This document shows, one piece after another, positions 1 to 9,798 of a stretch of 64,000 nucleotides of DNA. Made by a program: the position numbers and the translations under genes. Origin of the DNA: Lutibaculum baratangense AMV1 (GTDB taxonomy: Bacteria; Pseudomonadota; Alphaproteobacteria; Rhizobiales; Tepidamorphaceae); assembly GCF_000496075.1 (NCBI RefSeq), contig NZ_AWXZ01000040.1, forward strand, positions 186,001 to 250,000, written 5' to 3'. Each line of letters begins with the position of its first letter. The stretch's first letter is position 1. The notes beneath the pieces were generated by a model, which was given only the letters and a program-made list of their open reading frames with translations, did not search any database and was not told the DNA's origin.

Positions 1-1
1 G

Positions 2-379
2 CCGGGACCAGCGACGGGTCCGTTTCATTGGTCCAACCGCAAGCTTTCGGCGGTAGAGCTTGGACGAATTCAGACGTTTCCCGATGGCCTGACCTATGAT
101 TGCCGTCACGCCGACGTACAGCGGCTTGTTGGCAATGCTGTTCCATCTGCCCTCGGCGAATTGCTGGCACGCGAGATAAGTTACCAATTGCTTGGTTGCG
201 CGAAGATTGTCGCGCCTTTGTCGCTGATCCCGATGAAGCGTGGTGACATACCCGAGCCCGAGCCCATTGCACCTCTGCCAGCGAAGTACGCCTCAATGGT
301 CGGGGAGCATGAAGATCATCCGGGGACCGGTAAGGGCTATCGGGCAACTGGATGGGCTGCTGCCGCAGTGACTGGGTAG
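2..379 (+). CDS. DNA (cytosine-5) methyltransferase, C-terminal part (cut by window edge)
   Basis: The reading frame is open from the left edge and ends at 379, so only about 125 C-terminal residues are present. Two late C5-methyltransferase motifs are visible: RKLSAVELGRIQTFPDGL (motif IX type, from about 38) and LVGNAVPSALGELLAREI (motif X type, from about 125). The catalytic PCQ motif should lie to the left of the window. A C-terminal tail of about 65 residues follows motif X. The next gene is a vsr gene whose start overlaps this one by 28 bp, the usual dcm-vsr arrangement. Target sequence and completeness cannot be judged here. Confidence 0.85.
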   Translation, partial: PGPATGPFHWSNRKLSAVELGRIQTFPDGLTYDCRHADVQRLVGNAVPSALGELLAREISYQLLGCAKIVAPLSLIPMKRGDIPEPEPIAPLPAKYASMVGEHEDHPGTGKGYRATGWAAAAVTG

Positions 380-834
380 TGCAAAGACGCGAGCGTGTAG
401 TTCCTCAGGCCCCACCGCCGACATCAACGGGCGTCAGCGCGGTCATGCGCGGAAACAAGCGCTCGAACACAAAGCCCGAGATGATCGTGCGTTCGCTCTT
501 GCACGCGGCAGGCTACCGCTATCGCCTCCACGCATCCGATCTTCCAGGCAGACCGGACATCGTCTTCCGATCACGAAAGAAGGTGATCTTTGTGCATGGG
601 TGCTTTTGGCACCAGCATCCGGAACAGCACTGCCGTCTGCGAAAGCCCCCGAGGACGAATACGAGCTATTGGGGCCCTAAGCTCACTCGTAACGTGCAGA
701 GAGATGTGGCGAACCAGATGGCGTTGGCTTCGAGGGAGTATGCAGTGCTTGTCATATGGGAGTGCGAGCTTCGATACCCCGTGCTCCTGCGGTCAAAGCT
801 CGAGACGTTTCTCGGGCCCCCGCGGCGTGCCTAG
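352..834 (+). CDS. vsr: Very short patch repair (Vsr) endonuclease
   Basis: Vsr nicks next to T:G mismatches produced when 5-methylcytosine deaminates, and normally travels with a C5 methyltransferase. The 160-residue product has the family signature: a KPE-type N-terminal helix (NTKPEMIVRSLLHAAG), LPGRPDIVF with the catalytic Asp, VHGCFWHQH followed by a Cys (the structural zinc and active-site His/Cys residues), and the late WECEL Cys. It overlaps the upstream methyltransferase by 28 bp, which suggests translational coupling. A later internal start is possible because the family core begins near residue 30. A second, different Vsr lies at 6517. Confidence 0.9.
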   Translation: MGCCRSDWVVQRRERVVPQAPPPTSTGVSAVMRGNKRSNTKPEMIVRSLLHAAGYRYRLHASDLPGRPDIVFRSRKKVIFVHGCFWHQHPEQHCRLRKPPRTNTSYWGPKLTRNVQRDVANQMALASREYAVLVIWECELRYPVLLRSKLETFLGPPRRA

Positions 835-3206: not shown

Positions 3207-5000
<1,794 letters not shown>

Positions 5001-5055
5001 GGCTTGCTCGCTTCGGGGCTTGTCGTCGTCGGGTCTGTGCTTCGAAATTTCAGGC

Positions 5056-5081
5056 AATAAAAAAGGGCCTCGTCGGGCCCT
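5056..5081 (-). terminator. Intrinsic terminator in the ilvB leader (attenuator)
   Basis: On the minus strand a 6-bp GC stem (AGGGCC/GGCCCT, 5064-5069 with 5076-5081) is followed directly by TTTTTTATT. This is a normal rho-independent terminator, but it lies between the leader peptide (ending 5111) and the ilvB start (5000), so it would cut the transcript before ilvB. That position is what an attenuator needs. Confidence 0.75.
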
Positions 5082-5110
5082 CGGGTGCGCACCATCGTTC
5101 GGAGAGGTCT

Positions 5111-5164
5111 CTATGCCCCTCCGCCCATGGCGCGCCAGCTTACGAGAATGAGAGTGCGGGCCAC
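5111..5164 (-). CDS. Leader peptide of ilvB attenuator
   Basis: A 17-codon open frame starting GTG at 5164, preceded by a GGAGG Shine-Dalgarno (5170-5174) at 5-nt spacing. It encodes MARTLILVSWRAMGGGA with the run Leu-Ile-Leu-Val, the three amino acids made by the ilvB pathway. A terminator follows 30 bp downstream. Ribosome stalling at the Leu/Ile/Val codons when charged tRNA is scarce would be expected to let transcription continue into ilvB. A TATATT -10 box lies at 5181-5186, although no clear -35 was found. Attenuation of ilv operons is established in proteobacteria; this instance is inferred. Confidence 0.7.
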   Translation of the reverse strand: MARTLILVSWRAMGGGA

Positions 5165-5344
5165 GAGGGCCTCCGTGTCGAATATACCGTGGCGCGGAGA
5201 GTAGGCCGGGGAGGGGCGGGCGTCAAGGGCTAGCAAGAGAACGCGACGTGTGGAACAATACAAGAACATTCAGATCCCTCCGATAGATGGTCATCGGGGG
5301 AGGAGAATCGGGTTAAGTGGGACGAGTCACTCGGGAGCTTGATA

Positions 5345-6520
5345 ATGAAAGTCGCGGGGCTCTTCGCGGGCATCGGTGGTATGGAGCTCGGCTTGGGACG
5401 GTCTGGGCACCACGCCACCGTGCTGTGCGAGATCTGGGATCCTGCGAAAGCGGTGCTGCGTCGGCATTTCCCTGAGGCCCGGCTCGAATCCGACGTCACT
5501 CGGTTGCGCTCTCTACCGGACGACGTCGAGCTGATCGCGGCCGGCTTTCCCTGTCAGGACCTGAGTCAAGCCGGGCTGACGGCCGGCATCGAAGGCGCGC
5601 GTTCGTCCCTCGTCGGGCAGGTGTTCAGGCTGATCGACGAGCGACGCGTGCCTTGGGTGGTTCTGGAGAACGTCTCGTTCATGCTGCATCTTCGTCGCGG
5701 GCAGGCGCTCGAGATGATCGTGCGCGCCTTGGAAGAGCGCGGCTATCGCTGGGCCTACCGCGTCGTCAATTCGCTGGCCTTCCTGCCGCAACGCCGGGAG
5801 CGGGTATATCTCGTCGCGACCACGACCGACGTGGACCCGGCAGACGTTCTCTTGGCCGACGATGTTCAGGCGCCGGACATGGCCACGAGCCTCGAGCGGC
5901 ATGCTCACGGGTTCTATTGGACGGAGGGAGTGCGGGGCCTGGGGTGGGCTCCCAACGCCGTTCCGACCCTGAAGAACGGCTCCACCGTCGGCATCGCCTC
6001 GCCGCCGGCCATTCTTCTTCCTTCCGGCGAGATCGTGACGCCTCATATCGGCGACGCGGAGCGGCTCCAGGGGTTCGCTACAGGATGGACCGCGGCCGCC
6101 GAGGCGGTGGGGCGTCCTTCGCTTCGATGGTCTCTCGTCGGGAACGCGGTGAGCGTGCCGGTGGCGGAGTGGCTCGGTGGTCGTCTCATGGAACCGGGAG
6201 ACTATGATGCCGCGCACGACAGACCGCTCGACCCGGCCAAGAGCTGGCCGAGAGCGGCACGCTTCGATGGTGTCCGCAGGGTAGGGGTCGACGTCGGCGC
6301 CTTTCCGTCGTGGCGCAATCGCCCGCACCTCCACGATTTTCTGCAGCATCCCGGTAAGCCATTGTCCGCCCGAGCGACGCGGGGATTCTTGGGGCGCACA
6401 CAGCGGAGCACCTTGCGCTTTCCCGCCGGCTTCCTAGATCGCGTGCATGCCCACTGGCTTCGGGTCGAGGACTTTCGCTCTTCCCCGTCCGAAAGAGTCT
6501 CCGTTTACGCCGCCGAATGA
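5345..6520 (+). CDS. DNA (cytosine-5) methyltransferase with C-terminal extension
   Basis: The 391-residue protein carries the C5-methyltransferase motifs in order: I (VAGLFAGIGGMELGL), IV with the catalytic Cys (GFPCQDLSQAG), VI (WVVLENVSFML), VIII (FLPQRRERVYLVA), and IX-X (GDAERLQGFATGW ... WSLVGNAVSVPVAEWL). About 110 residues follow motif X that I do not recognise; these may help recognise the target or contact a partner. ATG at 5345 was chosen for the GGAG at 7-nt spacing. The vsr gene at 6517 overlaps the stop by 4 bp (ATGA). The methyl target is unknown. Confidence 0.92.
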   Translation: MKVAGLFAGIGGMELGLGRSGHHATVLCEIWDPAKAVLRRHFPEARLESDVTRLRSLPDDVELIAAGFPCQDLSQAGLTAGIEGARSSLVGQVFRLIDERRVPWVVLENVSFMLHLRRGQALEMIVRALEERGYRWAYRVVNSLAFLPQRRERVYLVATTTDVDPADVLLADDVQAPDMATSLERHAHGFYWTEGVRGLGWAPNAVPTLKNGSTVGIASPPAILLPSGEIVTPHIGDAERLQGFATGWTAAAEAVGRPSLRWSLVGNAVSVPVAEWLGGRLMEPGDYDAAHDRPLDPAKSWPRAARFDGVRRVGVDVGAFPSWRNRPHLHDFLQHPGKPLSARATRGFLGRTQRSTLRFPAGFLDRVHAHWLRVEDFRSSPSERVSVYAAE

Positions 6521-6948
6521 CGCTCCCTCTCGAGACAGACGCAGCACGCAGCGCCCTGATGGGGCGAGTGCGGCAGAGGGGGACCAAACCTGAACTGCGG
6601 GTGGCGGCTATACTTCGGAGCATGGGGGCGCACTACCGGCTCAACGCGCGCGGATTGCCCGGATCACCTGATTTCTCGAACCGGCGTCGGCGCTGGGCCG
6701 TCTTTGTTCACGGCTGCTACTGGCATCACCACACTGACTGCAAGCGCGCCACGATTCCCACGCGGAACCGTGAGTTCTGGCTGGAAAAATTCCACGCCAA
6801 TCGGGCACGCGACGCCAAGGCTCTCAGGGCGCTGCGCCGAAGTGGGTTTCGGGTGGCGGTGGTCTGGGAGTGTGAACTGTCGGATCCGTCGCTCGTGGAA
6901 GCGAAGCTGTCAAAGATCCTTGAACCGCGTCGAGTAGATGTGCCCTAG
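6517..6948 (+). CDS. vsr: Very short patch repair (Vsr) endonuclease, second copy
   Basis: The 143-residue product has TKPELRVAAILRSMGAHYRL at the N-terminus as two short blocks, LPGSPDFSNRRRRWAVF with the catalytic Asp, VHGCYWHHHTDC (His/Cys metal and active-site cluster) and the final WECELSD Cys. Its ATG overlaps the methyltransferase stop (ATGA), so the two are translationally coupled. Its 3' end overlaps the convergent gene at 6910-7773 by 39 bp. It differs clearly from the Vsr at 352-834, so the two copies look like separate acquisitions and not a recent duplication. Confidence 0.9.
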   Translation: MTLPLETDAARSALMGRVRQRGTKPELRVAAILRSMGAHYRLNARGLPGSPDFSNRRRRWAVFVHGCYWHHHTDCKRATIPTRNREFWLEKFHANRARDAKALRALRRSGFRVAVVWECELSDPSLVEAKLSKILEPRRVDVP

Positions 6949-7773
6949 GCGGTCTATCATCGAGGCGTAGTGGAAGATGTCTCCTGGCTGCGGTGCGGGT
7001 TCTTTCTCGAATAATTCTACAGGCGTTCCATCATTGACGCACCTGACGACCGAGATGGCGAGGGCGTCATAGCCGACATCGCCCGTACGCGATCTGCGTG
7101 GTAGCTGCCTGACTTTCTCGACGGCGAGGGCGGCGTATCGCGGCTGCGGATCGCTGCTCCACTCTGGGTCTGTCGCTCGGTTCTTCTTGTTCAGGTCAGG
7201 GCTCAAGTAGCGTTCCGCGATATTGGCCATGAAGAAGCCGGCGGCGATGGCCTGGTCGCTCGCGCCGTGTACGGTCGCATGTGAGGAGTTGAGTTCGTCG
7301 TAAAGGCGCGGCAACGCGCGTTGATGAGCCGTCATGCAGGCCTTCGCCTCGAGCGCCATCAGAAGCCCTCCGACTGCGGAGCTGTTGAGCGTCGGAAGTT
7401 CGGCCAGCACTTCCCTCTCTGCCGGGACGAGTGCGATCGCGTACCGCTCGGCCATGGTTTCGAGTGAGAGCCGGTTCTTCCGCGGCGCTTCGCCCGCCGC
7501 CGGTGTACACAAGACGAGATCGAGATCCTTCTTTCGATCGTGAACGAAGTCGCGGATCTCGTGGTTTATCCCGAACGTCACCTTGCCGGATTCGACATGC
7601 GTCCGAAGCAACGTGCAGGTTCGGAGTAGATCGAAAATTATTCCCCAGCACGCGACCTTGGAATGGTGATCGCTTCTCGGGTGGTACTGCCAATGATTCC
7701 CGTGTTTGTCCCGGCGCGTCGTTTCGGACAGAGTTCGAACGAGGATTTGTGGGCCGAACATAAGATCCCGCAC
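6910..7773 (-). CDS. Candidate restriction endonuclease next to dcm-vsr
   Basis: I do not firmly recognise this 287-residue protein. It has features of a PD-(D/E)XK nuclease: D83/D85 in KKDLDLVLC and, after a helical segment, E142-A-K144 in LLMALEAKACMTAHQRALP. A conserved-looking helix (RLYDELNSSHATVHGASDQAIAAGF) follows. The gene points at, and overlaps by 39 bp, the vsr gene of a methyltransferase-vsr pair, the position where a cognate type II enzyme is often found. No signal peptide or membrane segment is visible. The assignment rests on motif plus context and could be wrong. Confidence 0.5.
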   Translation of the reverse strand: MRDLMFGPQILVRTLSETTRRDKHGNHWQYHPRSDHHSKVACWGIIFDLLRTCTLLRTHVESGKVTFGINHEIRDFVHDRKKDLDLVLCTPAAGEAPRKNRLSLETMAERYAIALVPAEREVLAELPTLNSSAVGGLLMALEAKACMTAHQRALPRLYDELNSSHATVHGASDQAIAAGFFMANIAERYLSPDLNKKNRATDPEWSSDPQPRYAALAVEKVRQLPRRSRTGDVGYDALAISVVRCVNDGTPVELFEKEPAPQPGDIFHYASMIDRLGHIYSTRFKDL

Positions 7774-7817: not shown

Positions 7818-8459
7818 TCACCCACACCATCCCCGTCTCCGCCCCGTCCACTCCCGCGCCAGGCCCTCGGCCACCAGCACGGCGCCCAGGCTCCGCCCGT
7901 CGCGGGTGACGGTGCGCAAGCTTCGGCCGTAGCGGTCGGTGTCGCGGGCGCCGCGTTTAAGCTCGAACGGGCCTTCGCCCAGGAGGACCTGCAGCCTGTC
8001 GCGCGCCTGGACGGCGAGTTGCCGCTCGCGCGGGCAGGCGCCGTTCAGCTCCGGCGTGTCGATGTCGGCGATGCGGATCTTCTCAGGCCCGAGCCGGAAC
8101 GTGTCGCCGTCGATGACGCAGTCGCGCCGCGCGGCGCCGTTGCAGAGGGGCAAAGGGCGGCCCTCGCCGCGGCCGGCGGACGGGGCGCCCGGCAGGCCCG
8201 GCAGCGGGAAGCCCGTGATGTCGAGGGTGGGCAGGTCGAGGCCGGTCAGGTCCAGACCTGTCAGGTCCAGACCTGTCGCGGAGAGGCCGCGATCGACCCA
8301 TACCGGCGCCTCGAGCGCCGTGAGGCCGGCGAGGCCCAGCGCGACGAGGAGCGTGGGGAGCGCGGGCAGGCGGGCGAGGCGGCCGCGCCGGCGCTTCGGG
8401 GCGCCGCGCGACGGCGGCCTTGCCCGCCGCCGCCTGCCGAGCGGGATGATGTCGGCCAT
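7818..8459 (-). CDS. Thermonuclease (SNase-like) domain protein with membrane anchor
   Basis: The start at 8459 (MADIIPLGRRRR) has a GGAAGGGG ribosome-binding site. The 213-residue product has an Arg-rich N-terminus, one hydrophobic segment (about residues 31-50), a low-complexity linker with repeated LDLTG/LDLPT units, and a C-terminal SNase-like domain: RRDCVIDGDTFRLGPEKIRIADIDTPELNG, then RDTDRYGRSLRTVTRDGRSLGAVLVAEGLAREW. Asp and Arg residues matching the family active site are present. It is probably an envelope-anchored nuclease or a related extracytoplasmic domain. DNA repeats in the linker (GTCAGGTCCAGACCT twice near 8245) suggest slippage-prone length change. Confidence 0.8.
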   Translation of the reverse strand: MADIIPLGRRRRARPPSRGAPKRRRGRLARLPALPTLLVALGLAGLTALEAPVWVDRGLSATGLDLTGLDLTGLDLPTLDITGFPLPGLPGAPSAGRGEGRPLPLCNGAARRDCVIDGDTFRLGPEKIRIADIDTPELNGACPRERQLAVQARDRLQVLLGEGPFELKRGARDTDRYGRSLRTVTRDGRSLGAVLVAEGLAREWTGRRRGWCG

Positions 8460-8519
8460 GTCGGGTCCCCTTCCGGTCGTGCGATGGGTCAGTGAAGCCG
8501 GCGAGGGGTTAATGGAGGC

Positions 8520-8700
8520 TTTGGGGGAAACGAGGCGTTTTCCGTGCGGCCCCTGGGCCCCGGCTCGGTGGCCGGGGCACGCCGTGCGTGCGGCTTGGGG
8601 GGAGGGCGGTGCACCTTGTTCCACCCCCGCGGGAGGCGAGGGCGGGTGAAGGGCCATGCCCTTCCCGCGTGGCGCCGGGGCGGCAAGTCTCCGGGCGGCC
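8520..8700. repeat. Dispersed repeat mosaic upstream of amidase gene
   Basis: No gene is supported in the 313-bp gap 8460-8772. Most of it resembles the 2900-3200 element: a CCCGG/CCGGG hairpin (around 8550-8580), CTTGGGGGGAGGGCGGTGC, a CCCGCGGGAGGCGAGG block and AAGGGC...GCCCTTCCC. The last 70 bp before the amidase are less GC-rich and may hold its promoter (CTTGCGTAAACTTCG...TATACTTG near 8711-8747), with a strong GGGAGGGG ribosome-binding site. Confidence 0.6.
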
Positions 8701-8772
8701 GGGATCATACATTCCCTTGCGTAAACTTCGCTCCCGTTCCTATACTTGCCAAGTAAAAATCGGGAGGGGATC

Positions 8773-9798
8773 ATGCAGTACACGGACGAGTTCAAGTCGA
8801 TGGTGGCTGCCTTCATGCGGCTGCCGACCGAGTTTCCCAACGTGCGGCCGGCCTCGGTCGCGCAGTTCATCCTGGAGAGCGGGCGGGGAAGCTCGCTTCT
8901 GGCGCGCGAGCACAGGAACTTCGCCGGCATGAAGTGGCGCCCGGAGATGGCCGGGGTGGCGACGAAGAAGCTCGTGATCGCGCCGAGCGAGACGGCCGAT
9001 TTCTGCAGCTTCGAGAGCCTGGAGAAGTTCGCCGAGGGCTACTGGATCTTCCTGAACCGGGCGCCCTACGAGGGCTGGAAGGCGCACGCGGACGACCCTT
9101 ACGACTTCATCGGCTTCGTCGGCCGGATCTGGGCCGCCGACCCCGCCTACACCGAGAAGGTGCAGAACCTGATCGGCGAGGCGGAGGCGCTGATCGCCAC
9201 GCTGCGCGAGCCGCACGTGCACACCGACGGCGCGCCCTGCTGCGGCGGCATGATCGACCCGCCGGAGCCGATGGCCCACCGCGAGAAGCCGGCGGTGCGC
9301 TGGGACCCCTCGCCGTTCAACTGGTCGCGCGGGGGGACGCGGATCGACACGGTGGTGATGCACTACACGACCTCGCGGAACCTGCAGGGCACGATCGACT
9401 GGTTCAAGAGCCCGAACAACATCCACAAGACGGCGGCCCACTACGTGATCGGGCGGGACGGCACGATCGTGCAGATGGTGAAGGACGCCGACGCCTGCAC
9501 CCACGGCAACAGCCAGAACAGGCGCTCGATCGGCATCGAGCATTCCGCAGCCCCGGGCGACCCGATGACCGAGCCGCAGGAGCGGGCCTCCGTCGCGCTC
9601 GTGCGCTGGCTGATGCAGGAATACGCGATCGCGCCCGAGCGGGTGATCGGCCACAAATGCGCGCCGCGCGCGACGAGCTGCCCCGGCGACCTCTTCGCCG
9701 CCTACGGCGCGACCTCTGCGTCGGACTGCGCGGCGGTGACGAGGGCGATCCAGACCTGGGTGCGCGAGAGGGTGCTCGCGGAGGGCGTGATCGCCTGA
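8773..9798 (+). CDS. Two-domain cell-wall hydrolase: glucosaminidase-like plus N-acetylmuramoyl-L-alanine amidase
   Basis: The ATG at 8773 has a GGGAGGGG ribosome-binding site. In the 341-residue product residues 1-145 resemble the N-acetylglucosaminidase/flagellar-type lysozyme fold ([24 protein letters not shown], with a Glu in the expected place). Residues 185-335 form an Amidase_2/PGRP domain with zinc ligands in [15 protein letters not shown] and SCPGDL, plus [16 protein letters not shown]. No signal peptide is seen, which fits a phage-type endolysin or a protein released by another route. It would cut both glycan and peptide links of peptidoglycan. Neighbours do not reveal a prophage. 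Confidence 0.8.

What the first reader, a model, noticed from the sequence alone, without database searches (positions are those of the whole stretch)
6910..7773. Unannotated candidate restriction endonuclease converging on dcm-vsr
The protein has D83/D85 and E142-A-K144 spaced like a PD-(D/E)XK nuclease, and lies tail-to-tail with a Vsr gene, overlapping it by 39 bp. If correct it is a little-described REase family and the island is a full type II system. I could not name the family by sight.
Basis: inference. Interest (0 to 1): 0.6.

Follow-up and report, generated by a model that had tools for sequence, protein, structure and literature searches.

The report
Unnamed restriction enzyme beside its methylase
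A gene labelled only 'hypothetical protein' in related plasmids looks like the DNA-cutting half of a bacterial restriction-modification defence system, from an enzyme family that the protein libraries searched do not yet hold.

Summary
ORF 6910-7773(-) is a real gene with the stated features. AlphaFold2 gives a confident PD-(D/E)XK-type fold (pLDDT 95.4); the best structural neighbours are type II restriction enzymes (NgoMIV Z 8.4, BbvCI 8.1) and NucC (8.0). D85 and K144 are invariant in 63 of 63 aligned sequences; E142 is E in 62, D in one. Homologues were gathered by their own sequence only. Of 60 loci with at least 1.5 kb on both sides, 58 carry the same C5-methyltransferase family, in four gene orders; R and M distances correlate at r=0.86. 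Vsr is optional (42 of those 58). A distant subfamily lies beside or near an amino-methyltransferase instead. It is most likely the restriction endonuclease of a complete, horizontally acquired type II R-M-V unit. No library profile gave a credible match to any of 65 members. The target sequence is unknown: site avoidance in carriers equals that in non-carriers. A new family of a familiar kind: solid, moderately interesting.

The parts
6910..7761 (-). R: candidate type II restriction endonuclease, PD-(D/E)XK fold, 283 aa from the ATG at 7761 (287 aa from the GTG at 7773)
   Evidence: ORF; fold; conservation; neighbourhood; start
7519..7521 (-). codon of catalytic Asp (D85 GTG numbering / D81 ATG numbering), on the second core strand
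   Evidence: sequence; invariant 63 of 63; strand 76-87
7342..7350 (-). codons of E142-A-K144 (E138-A-K140), the (D/E)xK element, on the third core strand
   Evidence: sequence; E 62 and D 1 of 63, K 63 of 63; strand 130-142
7657..7686 (-). conserved motif YHPRSDHHSK just before and into the first core helix (Y, S, D and one H invariant); role unknown, perhaps DNA contact or active-site support (inference)
5345..6520 (+). M: cytosine-C5 DNA methyltransferase, 391 aa from the ATG at 5345
   Evidence: PF00145 E=1.5e-41; PADLOC MTase_II PDLC03324 E=1.2e-153
6517..6948 (+). V: Vsr mismatch endonuclease; its ATG overlaps the stop codon of M (ATGA)
   Evidence: PF03852 E=7e-25; TIGR00632 E=9.7e-35, above cut-off; sequence
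6910..6948 (.). 39-bp tail-to-tail overlap of R and V; 30 of 39 opposite-strand R/V pairs overlap by 4-99 bp, 39 and 42 bp being commonest

Best explanation
The gene encodes the restriction endonuclease (R) of a type II restriction-modification system, most likely of the common type IIP kind. M methylates one cytosine (C5) in a short target on host DNA; R, probably as a dimer with one PD-(D/E)XK active site per subunit (D85, E142, K144 holding Mg2+), cuts the same target when unmethylated, as in incoming phage or plasmid DNA; V repairs T:G mismatches left when 5-methylcytosine in the target deaminates. M and V are coupled on one strand, R converges on them from the other. Shown here: gene, fold prediction, conserved residues, near-constant and co-diverging partnership with M, foreign codon usage. 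Inferred: cleavage, specificity, dimerisation, protection by M.
For: Fold: AF2 pLDDT 95.4, pTM 0.93; a distant haloarchaeal homologue gives the same core (pLDDT 85.8). VIA-align: NgoMIV Z 8.4, BbvCI 8.1, NucC 8.0; 40 of the 50 rows shown are restriction enzymes, NucC, Cdn1 or Can2; for the haloarchaeal model 45 of 50 rows, 22 chains at Z>=8, NgoMIV 9.4. Catalytic residues: D 63/63, E or D 63/63, K 63/63. Neighbourhood: 58 of 60 loci with both flanks >=1.5 kb carry the C5-MTase family (40 convergent, 15 M>R>, 2 R>M>, 1 divergent), 57 of the 58 within 500 bp; 8 of the 13 loci with a short flank also do, and the 5 that do not are cut by a contig end within about 200 bp after R. Co-divergence: Mantel r 0.86 over 63 R-M pairs, 0 of 2000 permutations as high. 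R without M is nearly absent while M without R is common: 7 of 9 plasmid records with a related M lack R within 4 kb, as expected if R is harmful without M. The distant homologue L009 lies directly behind an N6/N4 methyltransferase (PF01555, 3.4e-21). GC3 of R/M/V is 0.71-0.77 against 0.94-0.95 in ilvB and leuB.
Against: No sequence match to any solved restriction enzyme. Foldseek found no PDB match at E<=0.001 and TM-scores near 0.2; VIA Z of 7-8 can mean only a common arrangement by the tool's own note, and 10 of 50 rows are mitoribosomal proteins. Two full-flank homologues have no C5-MTase beside them: L006 (haloarchaeon) and L072 (Polyangium, 42%), though the L072 genome holds the family M at L038. 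Relatives share ancestry, so the 58 loci are not independent. No activity data.
Confidence: 0.92

Rival explanations
1. A PD-(D/E)XK nuclease that serves Vsr repair or acts on modified or damaged DNA (type IV-like), not the cognate restriction enzyme of M.
For: R and V overlap tail to tail in the window and 30 of 39 opposite-strand R/V pairs overlap; NucC- and Can2-like nucleases are among structural neighbours.
Against: V is not detected in 16 of the 58 loci that have R and M, while M is nearly constant and co-diverges with R. A modification-dependent enzyme should not travel with a protecting M.
Confidence: 0.04
2. A member of the CCGG family of restriction enzymes (NgoMIV, SgrAI, Bse634I, AgeI, Kpn2I), recognising a CCGG-cored site with a permuted active site.
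For: NgoMIV is the best structural match of both models (Z 8.4 and 9.4), and SgrAI, AgeI, Bse634I, Kpn2I, PfoI and PspGI recur. E156 (ATG numbering), 16 residues after the Lys, is also near-invariant (E 62, D 1 of 63), so a permuted K...E is conceivable.
Against: The family's R-(D/E)R recognition motif (PMC6344858, passages) is absent from the helix after the (D/E)xK strand: 0 of 63 by R.[DE]R or R[DE]R. A canonical E-x-K is conserved. GCCGGC, ACCGGT and other CCGG sites are not specially depleted in carriers. Z values are tied with non-CCGG enzymes.
Confidence: 0.12
3. A degenerate, inactive relic of a restriction enzyme beside a still useful M-V pair.
For: Some homologues are broken (L009 has an in-frame stop; L065 and L069 match in two frames or pieces), so decay happens.
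Against: The window copy is full length with all catalytic and near-invariant residues, and 63 sequences keep them.
Confidence: 0.04

Closest known systems
Type IIP restriction enzymes of the PD-(D/E)XK superfamily (NgoMIV, BbvCI, PspGI, BstEII, EcoRI, BsoBI)
   Same: predicted core fold, catalytic D...(D/E)xK order, size (about 31 kDa), adjacency to a separate methyltransferase
   Different: no detectable sequence similarity to any solved enzyme; specificity unknown
CCGG-family restriction enzymes (Cfr10I, Bse634I, SgrAI, AgeI, PfoI)
   Same: closest overall structural arrangement among solved enzymes for both models
   Different: canonical E-x-K conserved instead of the permuted K...D/E; R-(D/E)R motif absent (family features from passages of PMC6344858)
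dcm-vsr pairs and M-V gene pairs of E. coli and Neisseria
   Same: C5-methyltransferase overlapped by a vsr gene on the same strand
   Different: here a third, convergent gene for R completes the unit
NucC effector nuclease
   Same: similar PD-(D/E)XK arrangement (Z 8.0 and 9.4)
   Different: partner gene is a DNA methyltransferase; no cyclase gene seen in the ORFs around the window gene

Membership tests
PD-(D/E)XK nuclease superfamily | alpha-beta-beta-beta-alpha-beta core | tested here: met
   AF2 model order H32-48, E62-71, E76-87, E130-142, H146-167, E172-180; restriction enzymes head the structural list, though Foldseek alone was weak
PD-(D/E)XK nuclease superfamily | Asp on the second strand and (D/E)xK on the third | tested here: met
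   D81 63/63, E138 62 E + 1 D, K140 63/63, on the right strands
PD-(D/E)XK nuclease superfamily | metal-dependent phosphodiester cleavage | not testable with these tools
   needs an assay
Type II restriction-modification system | endonuclease gene linked to a separate DNA methyltransferase gene | tested here: met
   window and 58 of 60 loci with both flanks
Type II restriction-modification system | R and M act on the same target and M protects from R | not testable with these tools
   indirect only: co-divergence r=0.86; R almost never without M, M often without R
Type II restriction-modification system | no translocase or specificity subunit needed | tested here: met
   only R, M and V lie between ilvB and the SNase-like gene in the window
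CCGG-family restriction enzymes | permuted PD...K...D/E active site | tested here: inconclusive
   canonical E-x-K conserved, but E156 after the Lys is near-invariant too; no coordinates were available to measure
CCGG-family restriction enzymes | R-(D/E)R recognition motif at the helix after the catalytic Lys | tested here: not met
   0 of 63 by two motif spellings; known members vary (PfoI, AgeI)
Vsr endonucleases | match to the Vsr profile | tested here: not met
   R: no Vsr match up to E=10 for the window protein nor among the 12 families listed for 65 members; V is the separate gene 6517-6948

The most novel reading that the evidence does not exclude
Probability: 0.25. Interest if true: 0.55.

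Novelty: new member of a known kind. Interest (0 to 1): 0.4.

Why it matters
Restriction enzymes with unrelated targets generally share no sequence similarity (passages of PMC4081073), so profile annotation misses them: here the homologues in two annotated plasmids are 'hypothetical protein' beside an annotated dcm and vsr. Naming this family turns 58 of 60 apparently incomplete C5-MTase (often with Vsr) loci into full defence systems and warns that a methylase called solitary may have an unrecognised nuclease next door. It could also yield a usable enzyme if the target is new.

Tried and rejected
Target from site avoidance: CTCGAG, CGATCG and others looked depleted in carrier flanks, but 19 stretches of 20 kb from non-carrier genomes show the same depletion; the strongest carrier/control contrast is z -1.4. 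Rejected.

Profile libraries: single-protein searches in Pfam, NCBIfam, PADLOC and PHROGs gave nothing credible; all 65 members gave only scattered weak matches to unrelated families (best E 0.021 Pfam, 3.1e-4 NCBIfam for 5 members to an arsenosugar radical-SAM model, 0.0064 PADLOC), taken as chance. PHROGs was searched with the window protein only.

Wider search for distant homologues: plasmids gave 3 records, phages none; viral contigs one locus by two scans; a piece of the L009 homologue found only the haloarchaeal plasmid and only itself among 2 genomes.

Naming the specificity through relatives of M: seven plasmid MTases with no R homologue within 4 kb carried no named nuclease in the records. 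A Caulobacter C5-MTase of known target (YGCCGGCR, PMC12907096, abstract and passages) could not be compared, as its sequence was not at hand.

Literature: searches returned no paper that I recognised from its listing as describing this family; only open-licence PMC papers are covered, and REBASE itself could not be searched, so it may list members as putative. Structural matches not found are no evidence of absence.

Full report
What is there. The window gene at 6910-7773 on the minus strand is an intact 287-codon frame (283 from the likelier ATG at 7761) that ends inside the 3' end of a vsr gene, overlapping it by 39 bp. Left of it on the other strand are a C5-methyltransferase (5345-6520; PF00145 E=1.5e-41; PADLOC MTase_II E=1.2e-153) and Vsr (6517-6948; PF03852 E=7e-25), coupled by an ATGA overlap. 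The frame is unlikely by chance (2 of 1000 shuffles reach its length). GC3 of the three genes is 0.71-0.77 against 0.95 and 0.94 in ilvB and leuB around them, and in four relatives of the same family the stretches of about 5 to 9 kb either side of ilvB hold no R, M or V, so the unit is probably acquired.

What kind of protein. No profile or solved structure matches by sequence. With 63 homologues AlphaFold2 gives a very confident model (pLDDT 95.4, pTM 0.93) whose elements run in the order of the PD-(D/E)XK core, with the invariant Asp on the second strand and E-A-K on the third. VIA-align places it next to type II restriction enzymes and related nucleases: NgoMIV Z 8.4 (177 aligned, 5.2 A), BbvCI 8.1 (165, 4.4 A), NucC 8.0 (175, 4.2 A); 40 of the 50 rows shown are restriction enzymes, NucC, Cdn1 or Can2, the other 10 mitoribosomal proteins. 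Foldseek alone was weak (best PDB E=6e-3, BbvCI; best viral model E=5e-4, a phage protein named restriction endonuclease). An independent model of the most distant homologue, from a haloarchaeal plasmid (25% identity), gives the same core (pLDDT 85.8) and stronger matches (NgoMIV 9.4, NucC 9.4, PspGI 8.8, BbvCI 8.6; 22 chains at Z 8 or more; 45 of 50 rows of these nuclease kinds). In the alignment of 63 sequences D85 and K144 never vary and E142 becomes D once, in that haloarchaeal protein, which is the exchange that the (D/E)xK motif allows.

Who its neighbours are. Homologues were collected by the R sequence alone: 66 loci from about 85,000 species genomes, three plasmids, one viral contig and genomes sampled by kinship (own genome included: 2 of 101, 3 of 385, 2 of 398), so the family is rare but wide: many alphaproteobacteria, also Lysobacter, myxobacteria, planctomycetes, verrucomicrobia, acidobacteria, gemmatimonads, actinobacteria and an archaeon, by record titles. 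I dropped repeat fetches of the window copy (L001, L007, L083), the duplicate haloarchaeal locus (L075), L009, in which tblastn with the window R found nothing, and the M-only plasmid loci (L076-L082), which leaves 73 loci including the window. Sixty have at least 1.5 kb on both sides; 58 of them hold the same C5-MTase family, 57 within 500 bp: 40 convergent, 15 M then R, 2 R then M, 1 divergent. Of the 13 with a short flank 8 hold M; the other 5 are cut by a contig end just after or within R. Vsr is found in 42 of the 58 (36 within 250 bp of R). R and M distances correlate at r=0.86 over 63 pairs (0 of 2000 permutations as high). Conversely, 7 of 9 plasmid records with a related M have no R within 4 kb. 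M without R is tolerated, R without M nearly never seen: the signature of a restriction enzyme. Relatives share ancestry, so the 58 are not independent, but four gene orders require repeated rearrangement with the pair kept.

The exceptions. L072 (Polyangium) has no MTase beside it, but the same genome holds the family M at L038. The haloarchaeal gene (L006) has no C5-MTase on its plasmid, but an N6/N4 methyltransferase (PF01555, E=2.9e-38) lies 3.2 kb away on the same strand. The distant, broken homologue L009 lies directly behind a PF01555 methyltransferase (E=3.4e-21). A second branch thus seems to pair with amino-methyltransferases; two cases only.

How it most likely works. M methylates a cytosine of a short site, R cuts the unmethylated site in invading DNA with Mg2+ bound by D85 and E142 and with K144, and Vsr mends deaminated 5-methylcytosines. 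Cleavage, target and dimer state are inferred. The convergent layout puts R on its own transcription unit, away from M-V; whether this serves control (M before R after entry) is conjecture; no sigma-70-like promoter was found by the simple scan. Functional coupling of Vsr and C5-methylation has been shown in Caulobacter by others (PMC12907096, abstract and passages).

What it is not shown to be. Best structural hits point to the CCGG family, but its R-(D/E)R motif is absent (0 of 63) and the canonical ExK is kept; I do not file it there. The target could not be read from site avoidance, since controls look the same.

Novelty. I found no profile for the family in four libraries and recognised no paper on it in the listings of nine searches, but REBASE was not searchable and the review literature says that thousands of such genes are listed from bioinformatics (PMC4081073, passages). 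Hence: new member, at family level, of a known kind.

Noticed in passing
window 1-834, continuing left (L132:3895-6834): A second candidate unit 4.5 kb from the first: MTaX1-domain protein (PF20296), C5-methyltransferase and Vsr in a row on the plus strand. Acetolactate synthase genes ilvN and ilvB lie between the two units; neither unit was found around ilvB in four relatives, so this may be a defence hotspot.
   Followed up: partly
own genome contig C42 (L133:2785-4603): A third Vsr plus C5-methyltransferase pair, with a 267-aa convergent ORF (4600-5403, minus) that overlaps the methyltransferase end and has no Pfam match: possibly another unrecognised restriction enzyme.
   Followed up: partly
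L003:3609-5730: On a viral contig the R-M pair, without Vsr, sits between what look like capsid and head-tail genes (read by eye from ORFs), suggesting prophage carriage of the system.
   Followed up: no
L006:2108-2824 and 5974-6753; L009:1498-2646: Distant R homologues near or beside PF01555 amino-methyltransferases, a possible change of methylase partner.
   Followed up: partly
L078, L079 (Bosea plasmids): Related C5-methyltransferases sit in a shared set of hypothetical genes with DUF488 and cold-shock proteins and no R homologue.
   Followed up: no
window 7818-8930 (-): SNase-like protein next to the island with a short TGLDL repeat before the nuclease domain.
   Followed up: no
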